From a virus: 25,106 nucleotides of DNA. The notes under the pieces were generated by a model, which was not told where the DNA came from, ran no database searches, and was given only the letters and a program-made list of their open reading frames with translations. The stretch is taken from the IMG/VR virus record IMGVR_UViG_3300035034_001446, positions 1 through 25,106 of that record. One strand, written 5' to 3'. Positions 14,886 through 22,902 of this stretch are shown here, one piece after another (position 1 is the first letter of the stretch; the number at the start of each line of letters is the position of its first letter). The translations under genes were made by a program, and so were the position numbers.

Positions 14886-15392
14886 TTACATCTTACCGAA
14901 CAAAAAGTTCTCTGTTATTATGCCAAATTTCATATTATGAGCCTTAGCATATGCTTTAGCTGCTTTAAATTTATCAGTATTAACAACATACGATCTCGCA
15001 TGAGATACAAAACTTCGTGTTTGTTTTTCAGTCATTCTTTTTGGAGTCTTAGGAGGAAGTATATACTTGTTAGGTTTAACTTCAATTAACCATTCACGTT
15101 CTACTCCATTAGCATTACGCGTTTTCATATATCCGTCTACCCAATATGTTGCCTCTCTTTTATCTATTGAGTGCCAATACTTAACTGAAACAGGTTCACT
15201 TGAATATTCTATTACCATCGGATTTTCATCACAGAATTTGAAAAACTTAAATTCCCATCCTGATCTATATATTATCTTAAGTGGATCTCCTTTATATTTA
15301 GTAGGATTTTTTGGTTTAAAATATCCTTGTCTAAATCTCCCATTTTTTCTAGGCTTTAGAAAATTCTTAATGTTTTTTCCATCATCTTCCAT
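14886..15392 (-). CDS. 4: Head completion nuclease gp4-like
   Basis: The 168-residue protein (T4 gp4 about 150) carries the family signature FRQGYFKPKNPTKYKGDP, then IIYRSGWEFKFFKFCDENP with a conserved Glu (E47). The nuclease centre is YWVDGYM (D86) and WLIEVKP (E104-V-K106), a PD-(D/E)XK-type layout. T4 gp4 (also called gp50) acts in head completion before tail joining. Its ATG overlaps the stop of the HNH gene (TAATG), so it now depends on translation of a mobile gene. A diverged copy of its first 35 codons lies upstream of the HNH gene. Confidence 0.9.
   Translation of the reverse strand: MEDDGKNIKNFLKPRKNGRFRQGYFKPKNPTKYKGDPLKIIYRSGWEFKFFKFCDENPMVIEYSSEPVSVKYWHSIDKREATYWVDGYMKTRNANGVEREWLIEVKPNKYILPPKTPKRMTEKQTRSFVSHARSYVVNTDKFKAAKAYAKAHNMKFGIITENFLFGKM
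15318..15331. repeat. 14-base direct repeat, copy 1 (in gp4 gene)
   Basis: AAAATATCCTTGTC (minus strand GACAAGGATATTTT) codes RQGYF-type residues in gp4 and recurs at 16093-16106 in the gp4-like fragment. It marks common descent of the two coding stretches. Confidence 0.7.
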
Positions 15393-16006
15393 TATATAAA
15401 ATACTCTGAAGTAGTATTAGACTCTTTTTTAAAATTCCTCCATTCTATACTAGTCATATTAATTTTACATCTATTTTCAAACCAGGTTAATATCTGTAAA
15501 TTAGAAATATCATCTGACCCTCCTTTGCTTGTAGGAACCATATGATCTAAACTAGGACTCAGCCATTTATATTTATTATGTGAGACCCACTTATCATAAA
15601 TTAAATTAAATTTGGAATCGTTATAAAAATGATGAATAAAATTGATTATATACTCTGGAGTCTTTGTTGATTTATCTATGTTTTTAATTAGAAACTTAGT
15701 TACTACCTTAAGTTTATCAAAATCCTCATATATGCTTAAGTCAACAGATTCACTTAGGCCCCACTGTACTCTCATGTTATTATATTTGGCAAATACGCTT
15801 AGCTTCCGTCCACGATTAGCTCCAATTTTACCAGTTAAAGATTTTGAAATTTTCAATTTAGTTAAATTTGATATTGGTCTCTTTCTTTTTGGGATGCCAT
15901 TATCATTTAATATTTTAGATATTTTTCTAGTACTTATATTAAACCTTTCTGATATATCAGAAAGAGTAACATTATTATTATATGCATCAATTATGTTAGA
16001 TTTCAT
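15392..16006 (-). CDS. HNH homing endonuclease with N-terminal helix-turn-helix
   Basis: This is a 204-residue protein. Residues 1-40 form a resolvase/RepA-like helix-turn-helix (AYNNNVTLSDISERFNIS, then TRKISKILNDNGIPKRKR). Next comes a NUMOD-like basic stretch (KLKISKSLTGKIGANRGRK), then a degenerate HNH centre at about 150-185: LSPSLDHMVPTSKGGSDDIS (D154-H155), SNLQILTWFEN (N169) and the following NRCK. No Cys pairs of zinc-type HNH are seen. It is a free-standing mobile gene lodged immediately before gp4, coupled to it by TAATG. Its 5' end lies 8 bases after a gp4-like fragment. Confidence 0.88.
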   Translation of the reverse strand: MKSNIIDAYNNNVTLSDISERFNISTRKISKILNDNGIPKRKRPISNLTKLKISKSLTGKIGANRGRKLSVFAKYNNMRVQWGLSESVDLSIYEDFDKLKVVTKFLIKNIDKSTKTPEYIINFIHHFYNDSKFNLIYDKWVSHNKYKWLSPSLDHMVPTSKGGSDDISNLQILTWFENRCKINMTSIEWRNFKKESNTTSEYFI

Positions 16007-16596: not shown

Positions 16597-17733
16597 CTAA
16601 ACGAACAATAAGTCAAATACGGATTGTGAGAAATTAGAACTGACTATGTCATTGAATTCATCGTACGTTTTACGATCTCCTACTTTATCATAGAAATTAT
16701 ACAAATTATTGATATCTTTAATATCATTTATTGCACCTCTATGATTAGGATATTCTTTCCTAAGTGATTCTATTAGCTTAGACCATAAAAATACTGAATA
16801 TCCATCTTGTAATAGCTTAACAGTTTCCTTTTTACCCGCAGCGTCATTGTCGAATAGTATACGGGCATTCTTTTTAGAAACTAAGGTACCAAGTATATTC
16901 TTACTTTTAGTAACACCAGCGGTGGCTATGGAGTTATTAAGGAACATAGCATCAATCTGGCCTTCTAATACAATTATAGGCTCACTGAACTTTATATTAA
17001 GAATATTGAAGTAGCTATTTATAATATCAATCTTCGTGATAGTTTGTTCGTCTGCAGCTGGGATTAATCCATTTTTAACAAACTGTGAATAATTTTTAAT
17101 ATCATATTTAGGTCCAACATAGTCTTCATCTATTCTTCTGATTGATAAGCCTAGAACTCTGCCGGATCTTAAATCTAAATTGAATATGTAGATTTTATCC
17201 ATTCTACTATCATAGTAACATGATTTTTCAAAAGCAGGAAGCTCAATTAAATTTCTTCCTCTAATATATTTACCTATTTTAGAATCATCTGGAGCATCTA
17301 TACATGGAATTAAAAAGAATCTATCTGCTAGTTCTTTGAAATCAATTAGAATATCCTTTACCTTTGGATTCATTAAGAACTCAATAAGAGCTCCACGTTT
17401 AGATGCTGTCTCTACTTTAGATTTTCCTGCACCTTCTGATATTTTAGGAATAGGGAGTGAATACTTTAATGCGAAGTCAGATACAAAATTATTAAGCTTT
17501 GTAAATTTTAAACATCCATCATTAAAACATTTATATGTAGCAGTTTTTAAATATAAGTTACCTCTTTTTTTTCCTGCATCATTTTCTGAATCTCCACAAT
17601 ATGGACATGCAAAATTTAGCTTATCGTCATCTTCGTCATTAAGTTGTTGCTTAAATCTATTTCTAGGAAATGCTTTCTTAAGAACATCACCAATGAAATC
17701 TACTATGAGGTAATTACTTTTAGTTTCCATCAT
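16597..17733 (-). CDS. 61: DNA primase (gp61/DnaG-type)
   Basis: The 378-residue product has an N-terminal zinc ribbon (C43-P-Y-C46 and C69-x4-C74, in ACPYCGDSE and YKCFNDGCLKF), as in T4 gp61 and DnaG. Its Toprim-type centre shows VLEGQIDAMFLNN (E257-G) and ARILFDNDAAGK (D295-N-D297). It makes RNA primers for lagging-strand synthesis with the replicative helicase. The frame is open from 17802, but the tandem ATGs at 17733/17730 right after the polymerase stop are preferred; the longer start would overlap the polymerase tail. It shares the leftward replication operon with the polymerase fragment, with no late-like motif. Confidence 0.9.
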   Translation of the reverse strand: MMETKSNYLIVDFIGDVLKKAFPRNRFKQQLNDEDDDKLNFACPYCGDSENDAGKKRGNLYLKTATYKCFNDGCLKFTKLNNFVSDFALKYSLPIPKISEGAGKSKVETASKRGALIEFLMNPKVKDILIDFKELADRFFLIPCIDAPDDSKIGKYIRGRNLIELPAFEKSCYYDSRMDKIYIFNLDLRSGRVLGLSIRRIDEDYVGPKYDIKNYSQFVKNGLIPAADEQTITKIDIINSYFNILNIKFSEPIIVLEGQIDAMFLNNSIATAGVTKSKNILGTLVSKKNARILFDNDAAGKKETVKLLQDGYSVFLWSKLIESLRKEYPNHRGAINDIKDINNLYNFYDKVGDRKTYDEFNDIVSSNFSQSVFDLLFV

Positions 17734-17734
17734 A

Positions 17735-19291
17735 TTAATTAGAAGAGTTTGCGGCCTTTTCTCTTGCCTTTCTATCCTTCTCCTCTTGTTTAGCTTTAGC
17801 ATTGGCTTTTTTCTCCTCTGCCTTTTTCTCTTTTTCTATTCGTTTCTCTTCAGCAAGTCTAGCAGTTTCGGCTAATCCCTCTGGTGAATATGCTCCAATG
17901 CCAAGCTTCTTTGAAATTCTATTAATAAAAGGTTTGAGATTCTTATTGATAATAATAACGGTGTTTAAACCATATTTTGTTATGATCTCTAGGTACTCAT
18001 CGAAATCTTCATCTGGGACATCCTTATCTGGATTTCCAATAATATCCCAGAATTTTTCTGGAACTTCTTCATGTTCTAATGTTTTCTCACATATCACATG
18101 ATATGGGTACATCTGATCATGTGTCATCGGCTTCTTAGTCTTAGAAGTTTTAAATACCACTGATCTTTTTAATTTCTCATTTATCGTATTAATACCAATT
18201 GCTTTCAATATTCTATTAATCGGTTCAACAATTAAAACAAAAAATTGTTGATCATAATCTAGTTCTGGAATAATTTCATCTGGATATTGACCTGGGTTAT
18301 ATGCGAATAAGTCTATTCCAAACTCATTTGGTTTACAATGTAACATTTGATACTTACTTCCCTGTCTAATTCTAGGATATCTACCCTCCAGTTCGTTTTT
18401 AAGTATCAAATAATTATGATGCATAACTGCCTTTGGACCATTTGCTGCTCCTTTTTTAAGAGTACATTTTTCTTCGCTTTTTACATACTTATCATATTGG
18501 CGAAGATTGAAACTTTGAGAATATTCATCTGGATGTAGAGTTAAAAATTCCTCTTTTACTTTTTCGATCTTTGGAATTAGATCATTTTCTAAATCAAAAT
18601 TAGTACCTGCCTTTAGTAAATATTCAATGAATGCAGTTTGGTGCTCTCTTGCCCATATTGGATAAGAAGCTTTTATAGGCTCAAGTCCTTTAATTAAAAG
18701 ATATCTTTCATCCATTGGATAAAGTTCTTCATTTGGATTAGGTTCATATGCTACCTTAAGTACATAATTCTTTTTCTTAATCCAAACTGCGTTAGTAGAA
18801 ATTGATTCTAGTTTAAATGTTTGACGATTTACAGTATTGAATCTCTCAGACCATTTTTCAAATGCAGTATCATAAAACTCTTTTATTCTATGTTTATCGA
18901 TCTCTATACACAGTCTCATGAATTCATCTTCTGTTAAATCTAATCCATCTATTGACTTCAATGCCGGTTCAAAATTAACATACGTTGAATCTGTATCTGT
19001 ATAAATTGCGATAATTTCATCCGGGTCTATTTTACTAATCGTCCGATCTGCGTATCCAAGCTTCTCATGTAATTCAGTATCTTCGTGCCATCTATTTTTA
19101 AAATAGAAATCAATCGCTTTATTAGCGAACTTAATCATATCTTGACCTTGAAGTGTAATTGATTGTGCGATATCGGGATTATAAAAATAAAACCATTTAT
19201 TTCCAAATGCTCCGTATATAGAATTAATAAGAATTTTAATCGCTCCTTGCCTCAGGCTTAATTGTTTGATTTTTTTCGCGTTGTCTTCCAT
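17735..19291 (-). CDS. 43: B-family DNA polymerase, C-terminal half of split gp43
   Basis: The 518-residue frame starts only 18 residues before polymerase motif B (RQGAIKILINSIYGAFGN; K19, N23, Y26, G27). It contains motif C YTDTDS (97-102), the palm core and the thumb (YLLIKGLEPIKAS). The exonuclease domain and motif A (SLYPS) are missing, and no other gene in the window carries them. A stop lies in frame four codons upstream of the ATG, so this is a true fragment. T4-like Aeromonas phages are known to have a split gp43, so the two parts probably assemble. The last 45 residues are a Lys/Glu/Ala tail (EEKRIEKEKKAEEKK), not the clamp-binding tip of T4 gp43. Confidence 0.92.
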   Translation of the reverse strand: MEDNAKKIKQLSLRQGAIKILINSIYGAFGNKWFYFYNPDIAQSITLQGQDMIKFANKAIDFYFKNRWHEDTELHEKLGYADRTISKIDPDEIIAIYTDTDSTYVNFEPALKSIDGLDLTEDEFMRLCIEIDKHRIKEFYDTAFEKWSERFNTVNRQTFKLESISTNAVWIKKKNYVLKVAYEPNPNEELYPMDERYLLIKGLEPIKASYPIWAREHQTAFIEYLLKAGTNFDLENDLIPKIEKVKEEFLTLHPDEYSQSFNLRQYDKYVKSEEKCTLKKGAANGPKAVMHHNYLILKNELEGRYPRIRQGSKYQMLHCKPNEFGIDLFAYNPGQYPDEIIPELDYDQQFFVLIVEPINRILKAIGINTINEKLKRSVVFKTSKTKKPMTHDQMYPYHVICEKTLEHEEVPEKFWDIIGNPDKDVPDEDFDEYLEIITKYGLNTVIIINKNLKPFINRISKKLGIGAYSPEGLAETARLAEEKRIEKEKKAEEKKANAKAKQEEKDRKAREKAANSSN

Positions 19292-19294
19292 ATT
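19280..19294 (-). repeat. 15-base inverted repeat arm at gp43C start
   Basis: The minus strand reads AATATGGAAGACAAC across the polymerase-fragment start codon. The same 15 bases occur on the plus strand at 19345-19359 across the divergent start codon, 50 bases away. Confidence 0.85.
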
Positions 19295-19320
19295 CTCAAG
19301 TTATATTCTGTTATATCTTA

Positions 19321-19329
19321 TATAAATAA
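19321..19329 (+). promoter_or_regulatory. Late promoter-like TATAAATAA
   Basis: TATAAATAA lies 18 bases before the ATG at 19348, an exact T4 late core. It lies in the 56-base divergent gap with the polymerase fragment, which has no matching motif on its own strand. Confidence 0.6.
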
Positions 19330-19344
19330 TTAAAATAAGGTTTT

Positions 19345-19359
19345 AATATGGAAGACAAC
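19345..19359 (+). repeat. 15-base inverted repeat arm at divergent gene start
   Basis: This plus-strand copy of AATATGGAAGACAAC covers the ATG at 19348, so both divergent proteins begin MEDN. It pairs with 19280-19294. Confidence 0.85.
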
Positions 19360-20768: not shown

Positions 20769-20805
20769 GAGTAAAGCTACTTAGTAAATTTTGATAGCTT
20801 TACTC
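20769..20805 (+). terminator. Putative phoH terminator stem-loop
   Basis: GAGTAAAGCTA pairs perfectly (11 base pairs) with TAGCTTTACTC across a 15-base loop, followed by TTTTA. It starts 9 bases after the phoH stop and is partly built from the 3' coding end of the convergent uvsW fragment. The short T tract lowers confidence. Confidence 0.5.
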
Positions 20806-21119
20806 TTTTACTTCCAAGAATCTCAAATTCCTGTCCTTCGTAAATTTCTTGCCTTGTTTTAGAATGTTTAACTGAATATCCTTTTAGATCATCAATAATA
20901 TCCCAGATAACAACTACATTCTTTCCAATTAGGAATCTCATTCCACGTCCAACTGCTTGTCTTATTGTAATCTCAGCTTTAGTAGATTCTACAAATATAA
21001 TATGATGAACATTCTTTAAATCAATACCAGTTGCAAAGGTTCCGTCAATACGAGGCAACTATAATAGCTGCCTCGTTCTTGTCCTCCGTTATGTTTTTAT
21101 GAAAAATTGGTTTCGCCAT
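20777..21119 (-). pseudogene. uvsW: UvsW-like helicase C-terminal fragment, frame-broken
   Basis: The last 88 codons (from GGA at 21043) read GTFATGIDLKNVHHIIFVES then RQAVGRGMRFL, i.e. helicase motifs V and VI of UvsW. Immediately upstream, in the preceding frame, 21119-21045 reads PIFHKNITEDKNEAAIIVASY and then TGA. Family logic needs ASY to run directly into GTF, so four bases (TGAC, 21047-21044) break the frame. A TTG at 21058 could start the C-part alone. Alone it lacks the ATPase domain. Either a decayed gene end, a recoded gene, or a separately made C-domain; I favour decay after element insertion. Confidence 0.8.
21050..21076 (-). other. RNA hairpin before the uvsW UGA
   Basis: The minus-strand RNA ACGAGGCAGCUA-UUA-UAGUUGCCUCGU forms 12 pairs with a single G-U. 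The stem ends on the first base of the UAU codon that precedes UGA-C. The pair would be A-C in plus-strand RNA, so folding suits the uvsW message only. Confidence 0.6.
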
Positions 21120-21309
21120 ATTTAGTATAATTAAATTTCCAACCTATAGTATTAGCTACAGATTCTTTATTTTTTACATTATTAGATATTACAGGTTTTC
21201 CTGAGTTTCTAAATTTATTAATCAATCCTCTATTAAAATTATGTGTCTTAATCATTAATCCTAATTCAGTGATCATTATATCTATAATTTTATTTTTCAT
21301 ATCAGTCAC
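21097..21309 (-). CDS. Small frame inside the uvsW interruption
   Basis: A 70-codon frame (MTDMKNKIIDIMITELGLM onward) lies in the same frame as the uvsW N-part, after its stop, and ends within the sequence that resumes UvsW similarity. It looks helical then polar (SGKPVISNNVKNKESVANT, then IGWKFNYTKYGE). I recognise no nuclease or splicing motif. It may be the remnant of a mobile gene that split uvsW, or chance. The interruption from about 21463 to 21107 otherwise holds no visible feature. Confidence 0.35.
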   Translation of the reverse strand: MTDMKNKIIDIMITELGLMIKTHNFNRGLINKFRNSGKPVISNNVKNKESVANTIGWKFNYTKYGETNFS

Positions 21310-21327
21310 AGTCCTAATAGCTTTTAG

Positions 21328-22902
21328 TTATTTATTAGACTCTATCCATGAATTAGCGACATCGTCATCTAATGTTATATCTTTTGCTAATTTAACTTTT
21401 TTATTAGTTAGTGTAACTCTCTTAAATTGACTAACTTTAATTTCAATATCATCCGCAAACCTAAGTATTGTTTTTGCGCTAGGTTCTTCCATCACATTTT
21501 TTGCGTCTTCCCGATCTGGGGTTTCAACTCCTCCATCAATATAAAAAGTATTTGGGTTCCATTCTTTTATTGCATTGTGAACTCTTAATCCATATTCATT
21601 TTTAACATCTGAAAATAGAACTAATGTATTTTTACCAAACTTACTAACGAGCTTACTTATAAAGTTCAATCGTTCATCACTATCAAATATGATTTGTTTT
21701 TCAATCTCTAACATACGCTTACCAAACTCCTCGGGCTTCCTGAATTGATCCTTTACTTTTTTACGTAATTCCTTATTAGTTTGAATTTTAATGTACTCTG
21801 CGACTGTCGGATCGTTCTCGTCGTATTCTAGATATACCTGTTTAATCTTAATATCAGGTGAATAGTCATTATCCATTAAGAATTTAGCACTAAGTGTCAT
21901 AACAAGTGGACCCGTTCTCTCTTGCATAGTAAAGAAATCAGAGAATTCTAAATCTATTTTCATAGTTCCAGATAATCCTATTTTATATTCCCAATTTACA
22001 CATGATTCTAATATATCTCCAATTGAGTTTCCTCTTGCTTTATGGGCTTCATCAACACATACAACTGAAAACTCATAGCATATATCCATAAGCCTTGCAT
22101 TTGCAAGCTTGCGTTTTATATTCATGATATCCCTTTGGCGCTTTTCCTCTTCTCCCTTTTTGATACTCTTCATTATTAGATTCTCAAGTTTGTGTTCCAA
22201 ACATATAGGAACTAAGTTAAGCATGCTTTGATATGTAGTAATCATCATATCACATTCGTTAAACTTATCTATATCAAACTCTCCCTTCTTACCTCCAACT
22301 GTATGTATATTCCAATCAACCAATCCGTTTGAGAATTGCTTAAACGCTTTAGCAGTTTGATTAACCAGACTCACATTTGGAACGATGAGTAATGTTTTTT
22401 TCTTATTGCTTATTGTTCCAACGTATTTTAAGAAAGAATTATAAGTATAGAATATAGATGTTTTCCCACTGGATGTTGCGAGCTCTTCACAGCAAAACTT
22501 ATATTTAAGAGCTCTAAACGCTCCTTCATATTGATAATCTCTTGGGTAAAATGGTTCACCCTTGTCAGTAGTAATACCTTTGTATAAGGCATTGACAAAT
22601 TTTTCATAATTGTGTCGATTTAATTCTAGATCTAAATGTGATTTTATTCCCTCTATTTTAGTAGGAATATCATAGATCCTTGTGAACTCTGAAACTTCTA
22701 GCCAGAGTCCAATTGGAATTGTAAAGTTTTTTGTCATAAAGTGATCACACCCATCCCATGTTCCGTTTTCAACAGAAGCATTAAAAGCTGCATCCTTTGA
22801 CTTCTTTTTAAAGAAGCTATAGATATAATCTCTTTCAGAAGAAAGGTCATAGTGTGTGAGCTTTAAGTGTTTATGATCATCAGTTATACCGAATTTTAAC
22901 AT
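21328..22902 (-). CDS. uvsW: UvsW-like superfamily 2 helicase, N-terminal part with foreign tail
   Basis: This is a 524-residue protein. It has the UvsW-type N-terminal domain (about 1-110), the Q-like RDYQ (121-124), Walker A ATSSGKTS (142-149), DEAH (284-287), SGT (311-313) and motif IV (LVLFSDVKNEYGLRV). The family pattern holds to AKNVMEEPSAKTIL (about 467-480), where VASYGTF should follow. Instead comes RFADDIEIKVSQFKRVTLTN and a further tail ending in WIESNK, which resembles a Hint/intein-type beta segment but lacks the first splicing block. Motifs V and VI are in the fragment at 20777. T4 UvsW handles branched DNA in recombination-driven replication; without V and VI this part is probably not a full helicase. 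Confidence 0.85.
   Translation of the reverse strand: MLKFGITDDHKHLKLTHYDLSSERDYIYSFFKKKSKDAAFNASVENGTWDGCDHFMTKNFTIPIGLWLEVSEFTRIYDIPTKIEGIKSHLDLELNRHNYEKFVNALYKGITTDKGEPFYPRDYQYEGAFRALKYKFCCEELATSSGKTSIFYTYNSFLKYVGTISNKKKTLLIVPNVSLVNQTAKAFKQFSNGLVDWNIHTVGGKKGEFDIDKFNECDMMITTYQSMLNLVPICLEHKLENLIMKSIKKGEEEKRQRDIMNIKRKLANARLMDICYEFSVVCVDEAHKARGNSIGDILESCVNWEYKIGLSGTMKIDLEFSDFFTMQERTGPLVMTLSAKFLMDNDYSPDIKIKQVYLEYDENDPTVAEYIKIQTNKELRKKVKDQFRKPEEFGKRMLEIEKQIIFDSDERLNFISKLVSKFGKNTLVLFSDVKNEYGLRVHNAIKEWNPNTFYIDGGVETPDREDAKNVMEEPSAKTILRFADDIEIKVSQFKRVTLTNKKVKLAKDITLDDDVANSWIESNK

What the first reader, a model, noticed from the sequence alone, without database searches (positions are those of the whole stretch)
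17735..19291. Split DNA polymerase: fragment starts at motif B
The gene begins just before KxxxNSxYG and keeps YTDTDS, but lacks the exonuclease domain and motif A; neither is elsewhere in the window. Split gp43 is known in Aeromonas T4-like phages. Here the break lies between motifs A and B, and no endonuclease remains next to it. The partner must be encoded at a distance, so the holoenzyme would be assembled in trans.
Basis: partly seen in the sequence, partly recalled or inferred. Interest (0 to 1): 0.65.

Follow-up and report, generated by a model that had tools for sequence, protein, structure and literature searches.

The report
DNA polymerase encoded as two distant halves
This virus encodes its DNA-copying enzyme as two separate proteins from genes that, in its relatives, lie about 40-65 kb apart, each carrying half of the catalytic centre, and the arrangement is shared by a whole little-studied branch of T4-type phages.

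Summary
ORF 17735-19291(-), 518 aa, is the C-terminal half of a T4-type family B DNA polymerase. It starts 18 residues before motif B, keeps YTDTDS, and no N-terminal half lies in the window. The window is only a 25-kb IMG/VR fragment, so I looked in relatives. A contig whose C-half is 91% identical carries the predicted partner, a 478-aa protein with the exonuclease motifs and motif A, 53.6 kb away on the same strand. Nineteen contigs carry both halves, 38-67 kb apart, always in the same order. Four ~271-kb contigs broken at different points all give about 43.2 kb; they and seven other long relatives have no intact gp43, PolA or PolIII-alpha. Readable C-half loci start, and N-half loci end, at the fingertip. 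Both halves are under purifying selection. The catalytic aspartates sit on different chains, so the replicase should be an obligate heterodimer (inferred). The break matches the adjacent split of Aeromonas phages; RM378 is also split at a distance, but between exonuclease and polymerase domains. Megaphage records share the distant fingertip split; the tree favours one origin. New, clade-wide variant of a known kind.

The parts
17735..19291 (-). gene for the C-terminal half of T4-type family B DNA polymerase (fingers second helix, C-terminal palm, thumb, plus extension), 518 aa
19211..19237 (-). motif B, KILINSIYG (residues 19-27; K19 and N23 align with RB69 K560 and N564)
   Evidence: alignment; conserved
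18986..19003 (-). motif C, YTDTDS (residues 97-102), catalytic aspartates of this chain
18764..18778 (-). KKKNY (residues 172-176), counterpart of the KKRY-type DNA-binding motif
   Evidence: invariant; aligned to RB69
17738..18175 (-). C-terminal extension (residues 373-518): part to about residue 462 conserved in the clade and beyond the end of the T4-type profile match; rest is K/E-rich and variable
19292..19347 (.). short divergent intergenic region upstream of the C-half; no N-half, intein or intron found
16597..17802 (-). DNA primase gene, overlapping the end of the C-half gene by 68 bases; same order in L002

Best explanation
The gene encodes one of two subunits of an obligate heterodimeric T4-type replicative DNA polymerase. 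The other subunit (about 475 aa: N-terminal domain, 3'-5' exonuclease, N-terminal palm with motif A, first fingers helix) is encoded about 50 kb away, at what looks like the ancestral gp43 locus next to uvsX and the DnaB-type helicase. The two chains fold together at the palm and pair their fingers helices. The metal-binding aspartate of motif A and the arginine matching RB69 R482 come from the N-half; the aspartates of motif C and the residues matching RB69 K560 and N564 come from the C-half, so neither half alone can polymerise. Shown here: existence, position, pairing, conservation and purifying selection of both halves in relatives; absence of an intact gp43, PolA or PolIII-alpha in the relatives examined; a single supported clade. 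Inferred: that the window's own genome has the N-half, that the chains assemble without covalent joining, and that the split arose by insertion of a mobile endonuclease gene in the fingertip followed by its loss and relocation of the C-half.
For: Partner found 53.6 kb away in the 91% identical relative G001 and at 38-67 kb in 18 further contigs, always same strand with the N-half first. In four ~271-kb contigs broken at different points the spacing stays at about 43.2 kb. Profile coverage is complementary: N-halves end at phrog_262 486-510, C-halves mostly start at 495-502; PF00136 22-139 and 143-237. Exonuclease motifs and motif A are conserved in N-halves, motifs B and C in C-halves. dN/dS 0.056-0.106 for the C-half and 0.025-0.058 for the N-half. 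No intact gp43, PolA or PolIII-alpha. The N-half is followed by UvsX and DnaB-like helicase genes, as intact gp43 is in Prochlorococcus phage Syn1. The adjacent fingertip-split halves of Aeromonas phage 25 co-purify and polymerise (PMC2988022). Tree: distant fingertip splits form one clade, support 100/98.
Against: No biochemistry, and no two-chain model could be made with the tools. The window itself is a fragment, so its own partner is unseen. The AlphaFold model of the N-half was poor (mean pLDDT 42.5) and the finger and palm parts of the C-half model are weak. In the window's clade the position matching RB69 K486 is Gln, not Lys. The best-80 limit of the scans means that intact relatives further out could have been missed.
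Confidence: 0.9

Rival explanations
1. The halves are rejoined covalently: a split intein or a trans-spliced (group I) intron links the two products, so the working enzyme is one chain.
For: Split inteins are known in phage replication genes; Pseudomonas phage MIJ3 has a split polymerase B with an intein (PMC6892783). A relative of this phage seems to have a fractured intein elsewhere (uvsW in L006).
Against: The C-half starts with an invariant Met 18 residues before motif B, too short for a C-intein. N-halves stop directly after the fingers helix with no intein-like tail. No Rfam RNA family in the window.
Confidence: 0.04
2. The C-half is a paralogous remnant and an intact gp43 exists elsewhere in the genome.
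For: Cannot be excluded from the window alone.
Against: No intact gp43 in any of 11 long relatives, including four ~271-kb contigs; strong purifying selection; both halves are present in each of those 11.
Confidence: 0.02
3. The halves act as two independent enzymes: the N-half as a free 3'-5' exonuclease and the C-half as a DNA-binding or other protein.
For: The N-half holds a complete exonuclease domain, and in RM378 the exonuclease is a separate protein.
Against: The break leaves motif A and one fingers helix on the N-half and motifs B and C on the C-half, all conserved; this only makes sense if a joint active site is under selection. No PolA or PolIII-alpha was recognised.
Confidence: 0.03
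4. Assembly artefact or contig-end truncation.
For: The window is a metagenomic fragment.
Against: The gene is internal with an upstream stop, and the same start is seen in dozens of independent contigs.
Confidence: 0.005

Closest known systems
Split gp43A/gp43B of Aeromonas phages 44RR2.8t and 25 (and Vibrio phage henriette 12B8)
   Same: T4-type polymerase broken at the same place, the fingertip between motifs A and B; in phage 25 the halves co-purify and are active (PMC2988022)
   Different: There the halves are adjacent, separated by an untranslated stretch (44RR), a homing endonuclease gene (25) or an ORF that looks like one (henriette); here 38-67 kb apart with nothing left at the break. 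On the tree they are separate from the distant-split clade.
Rhodothermus phage RM378 p024/p092
   Same: T4-type polymerase in two genes about 57 kb apart
   Different: RM378 is broken between the exonuclease and polymerase domains, leaving motifs A, B and C on one chain; here the catalytic centre itself is divided.
'Uncultured phage' megaphage records LR756500, LR756501, LR756502, LR756504, LR745206 (462-735 kb)
   Same: Same fingertip split with separated halves; sister group on the tree, 100/98
   Different: Larger genomes; in four of five the halves are on opposite strands; in LR756500 the pieces are only about 10 kb apart and the C-half has a further intein/endonuclease interruption at motif C. 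The huge-phage paper that I checked contains neither 'split' nor 'DNA polymerase' (PMC7162821).
Pseudomonas phage MIJ3 split PolB with intein
   Same: Polymerase B encoded in pieces
   Different: Pieces adjoin a split intein and an HNH gene (PMC6892783).
Split minimal DNA polymerase III alpha of group 2.2 jumbo phages
   Same: Polymerase catalytic module divided between distant genes (PMC7824862)
   Different: Different polymerase family.

Membership tests
T4-type family B DNA polymerase | motifs B and C, thumb and palm homology in the window gene | tested here: met
T4-type family B DNA polymerase | exonuclease motifs and motif A on the same chain | tested here: not met
   absent from the window; in relatives on a separate chain
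Aeromonas-type split gp43A/gp43B | break at the fingertip between motifs A and B | tested here: met
   alignment with T4, 44RR and 25
Aeromonas-type split gp43A/gp43B | halves adjacent, with intercistronic sequence or homing endonuclease between | tested here: not met
   38-67 kb apart in relatives; no endonuclease beside the C-half in the window
RM378-type distant split | halves tens of kb apart | tested here: met
RM378-type distant split | break between exonuclease and polymerase domains | tested here: not met
   RM378 p092 carries motifs A, B and C
Fractured gene with split intein | intein blocks at the C-terminus of the N-half and N-terminus of the C-half | tested here: not met
Obligate heterodimeric polymerase | physical association and joint activity | not testable with these tools
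   no two-chain modelling or biochemistry; precedent only (PMC2988022)

The most novel reading that the evidence does not exclude
A large, mostly uncultured branch of T4-type phages, from ordinary-sized to 735-kb genomes, has replicated since before its diversification with a two-subunit family B polymerase whose catalytic aspartates lie on different subunits made from distant operons, giving a natural way to control replicase assembly.
Probability: 0.65. Interest if true: 0.72.

Novelty: new variant of a known kind. Interest (0 to 1): 0.6.

Why it matters
T4/RB69 gp43 is the model for family B replicases. Here the same enzyme is divided through its active site and its genes pulled apart, and this has been stable across a broad group of phages. 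It gives ready material for asking how a replicative polymerase tolerates a break in its fingers, whether separate synthesis of the halves regulates replication, and how mobile endonucleases lead to permanent gene fission. It also means that annotation or phylogeny relying on full-length gp43 could miscount this group.

Tried and rejected
Structure of the N-half: AlphaFold with 16 close sequences gave pLDDT 42.5, unusable. A two-chain model was not attempted: the prediction tool takes a single protein and turns away sequences not present in the DNA. First-pass motif-B pattern missed most of the diverged loci because they have NSFYG; re-examined by match position. Split intein and group I intron at the break: no evidence. 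Apparent long N-half frames (700+ aa) in some genome search rows: the stop was checked in L045 and other loci and the ORF ends at about 475 aa. Literature searches for earlier reports of a distant fingertip split found only the Aeromonas, MIJ3 and PolIII cases; subscription papers, including the original Petrov papers, were not readable. A blastn synteny table of window against L002 failed to run; gene order was compared from ORF lists instead. One genome-collection scan found a single relative, in a contig binned with a Bacteroidetes MAG: a weak host hint only.

Full report
WHAT IS IN THE WINDOW. The ORF at 17735-19291 on the minus strand is 518 aa. It matches PF00136 at profile positions 143-237 of 453, full-length T4-type polymerase phrog_262 from position 501 to 844, and best of all phrog_1918, a 382-position family whose length suggests that it consists of C-terminal halves (that reading of phrog_1918 is inference). 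Aligned to RB69 polymerase, profile residue 17 corresponds to residue 558, so K19 is K560 and N23 is N564 of motif B, and YTDTDS is motif C. The predicted fold of the C-half retrieves RB69 and T4 polymerases from the PDB (E about 1e-9, query TM-score only about 0.46). There is no motif A or exonuclease domain in the window. The window is a 25,106-base IMG/VR fragment, so absence there says nothing about the genome.

THE PARTNER. A scan of viral contigs with the C-half gave 43 relatives. The closest long one, G001 (138.6 kb, C-half 91% identical), is collinear with the window around the gene by ORF order and has exactly one other gp43-like stretch, an N-terminal half ending at phrog_262 position 492, 53.6 kb from the C-half on the same strand. 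The pattern repeats in G012, G020, G022, G029, G030, G031, G033, G038-G045 and, from locus coordinates, in three more contigs: nineteen contigs, N-half first, same strand, 38-67 kb apart. Four contigs of 270-271 kb, broken at different points, give 43.15-43.3 kb when read as circular permutations, which indicates that they are essentially complete (inference). In them and in seven other long relatives there are an N-half and a C-half, at most one further weak exonuclease-like match, and no intact gp43, no PolA and no PolIII-alpha. A weak clamp-loader-like match is present in ten of eleven; that profile is a generic ATPase and I place no weight on it.

THE BREAK. C-half loci in which the region is readable start shortly before motif B with no motif A upstream in the same frame, and the Met is invariant in 22 aligned sequences. 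N-half loci stop about 60-110 residues after motif A, at the end of the first fingers helix, with no fused motif B. Against T4 gp43 the N-half ends near residue 500 and the C-half begins near 550; the 44RR halves end and begin at about 499 and 512. The break thus lies at the fingertip, where loss of the linking loop is tolerable, but it puts the motif A aspartate and the residue matching RB69 R482 on one chain and the motif C aspartates and the residues matching K560 and N564 on the other. Roles of these residues are from general knowledge of RB69. dN/dS of 0.03-0.11 on both halves shows that both are under purifying selection.

HOW IT PROBABLY WORKS AND AROSE. The simplest reading is a two-chain replicase assembled after translation, as shown for the adjacent halves of Aeromonas phage 25, which co-purify and polymerise (PMC2988022). 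Splicing of the chains is unlikely: there is no room for an intein at either end and no RNA family was found. The N-half is followed by UvsX and a DnaB-type helicase gene, the order in which intact gp43 stands in Syn1 (gp43-uvsX-gp41), so the N-half appears to keep the ancestral place and the C-half to have moved next to primase (inference). Homing endonuclease insertions are the likely first step: one is still between the halves in phage 25, a probable one in Vibrio phage henriette (NUMOD3-like by eye), and the window's own uvsW shows another such event in decay.

RELATION TO KNOWN SPLITS. RM378 has an exonuclease chain and a polymerase chain 57 kb apart, but all polymerase motifs are on one chain. 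Five megaphage records of 462-735 kb have the same fingertip break with separated halves, four of them on opposite strands. In a tree of 19 polymerases the distant fingertip splits, small and huge, are one group with 100/98 support, while 44RR and henriette fall among intact polymerases. Caveats: the taxa were chosen by similarity, rooting is by midpoint, RM378 and Campylobacter phage PC5 are long branches, and the first piece of the LR756500 C-half was left out of that row. One ancient split is therefore favoured, not proven.

LITERATURE. Searches of the held library found the Aeromonas case, the MIJ3 intein case and a split PolIII in jumbo phages. The huge-phage paper checked has no mention of split polymerases. 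Most subscription papers are not held, so earlier notice cannot be excluded.

VERDICT. The kind (split T4-type polymerase) is known; the combination of fingertip break, large distance, no remaining mobile element and fixation across a clade is a new variant.

Noticed in passing
20777-22902 (-): The UvsW helicase gene is interrupted just before motif V: N part 21328-22902, a 70-aa remnant 21097-21309 of a homing endonuclease that is intact (325 aa) in L006:7214-8191, and C part 20777-21058. L002 has an uninterrupted 571-aa UvsW.
   Followed up: partly
window about 21021-21060 (-); same junction in L043, L032, L035: At the 3' side of the uvsW insertion there are 4 extra bases (TGAC) in the window between the codons for VASY and GTF, giving a stop and a shift; the shifted reading frames of L035, L032 and L043 imply 7 extra bases at the same place. 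No Rfam group I intron match; mechanism unknown.
   Followed up: partly
L006:4360-7195: UvsW of this relative also seems to have a fractured intein at motif II (VDE-C...SN-CHK) with an endonuclease-like ORF between the intein halves.
   Followed up: no
LR756500.1 248813-252414: The megaphage C-half is itself interrupted at motif C by intein-like sequence and an endonuclease-like ORF, so its polymerase is encoded in three pieces.
   Followed up: partly
NC_021073.1 23146-26426: Vibrio phage henriette 12B8 has an adjacent fingertip split of gp43 with an HNH/NUMOD-like ORF between the halves.
   Followed up: no
L035, L038: Some relatives have an insertion in the C-half near motif C, consistent with an intein at that site (two matches inside one open frame in G018 and G019).
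   Followed up: no
15392-16006 (-): HNH ORF with weak NUMOD3 match, 1.7 kb from the polymerase gene.
   Followed up: no
L331: The only relative in the bacterial genome collection lies in a 254-kb contig binned with an uncultured Bacteroidetes MAG, a weak hint of the host.
   Followed up: no
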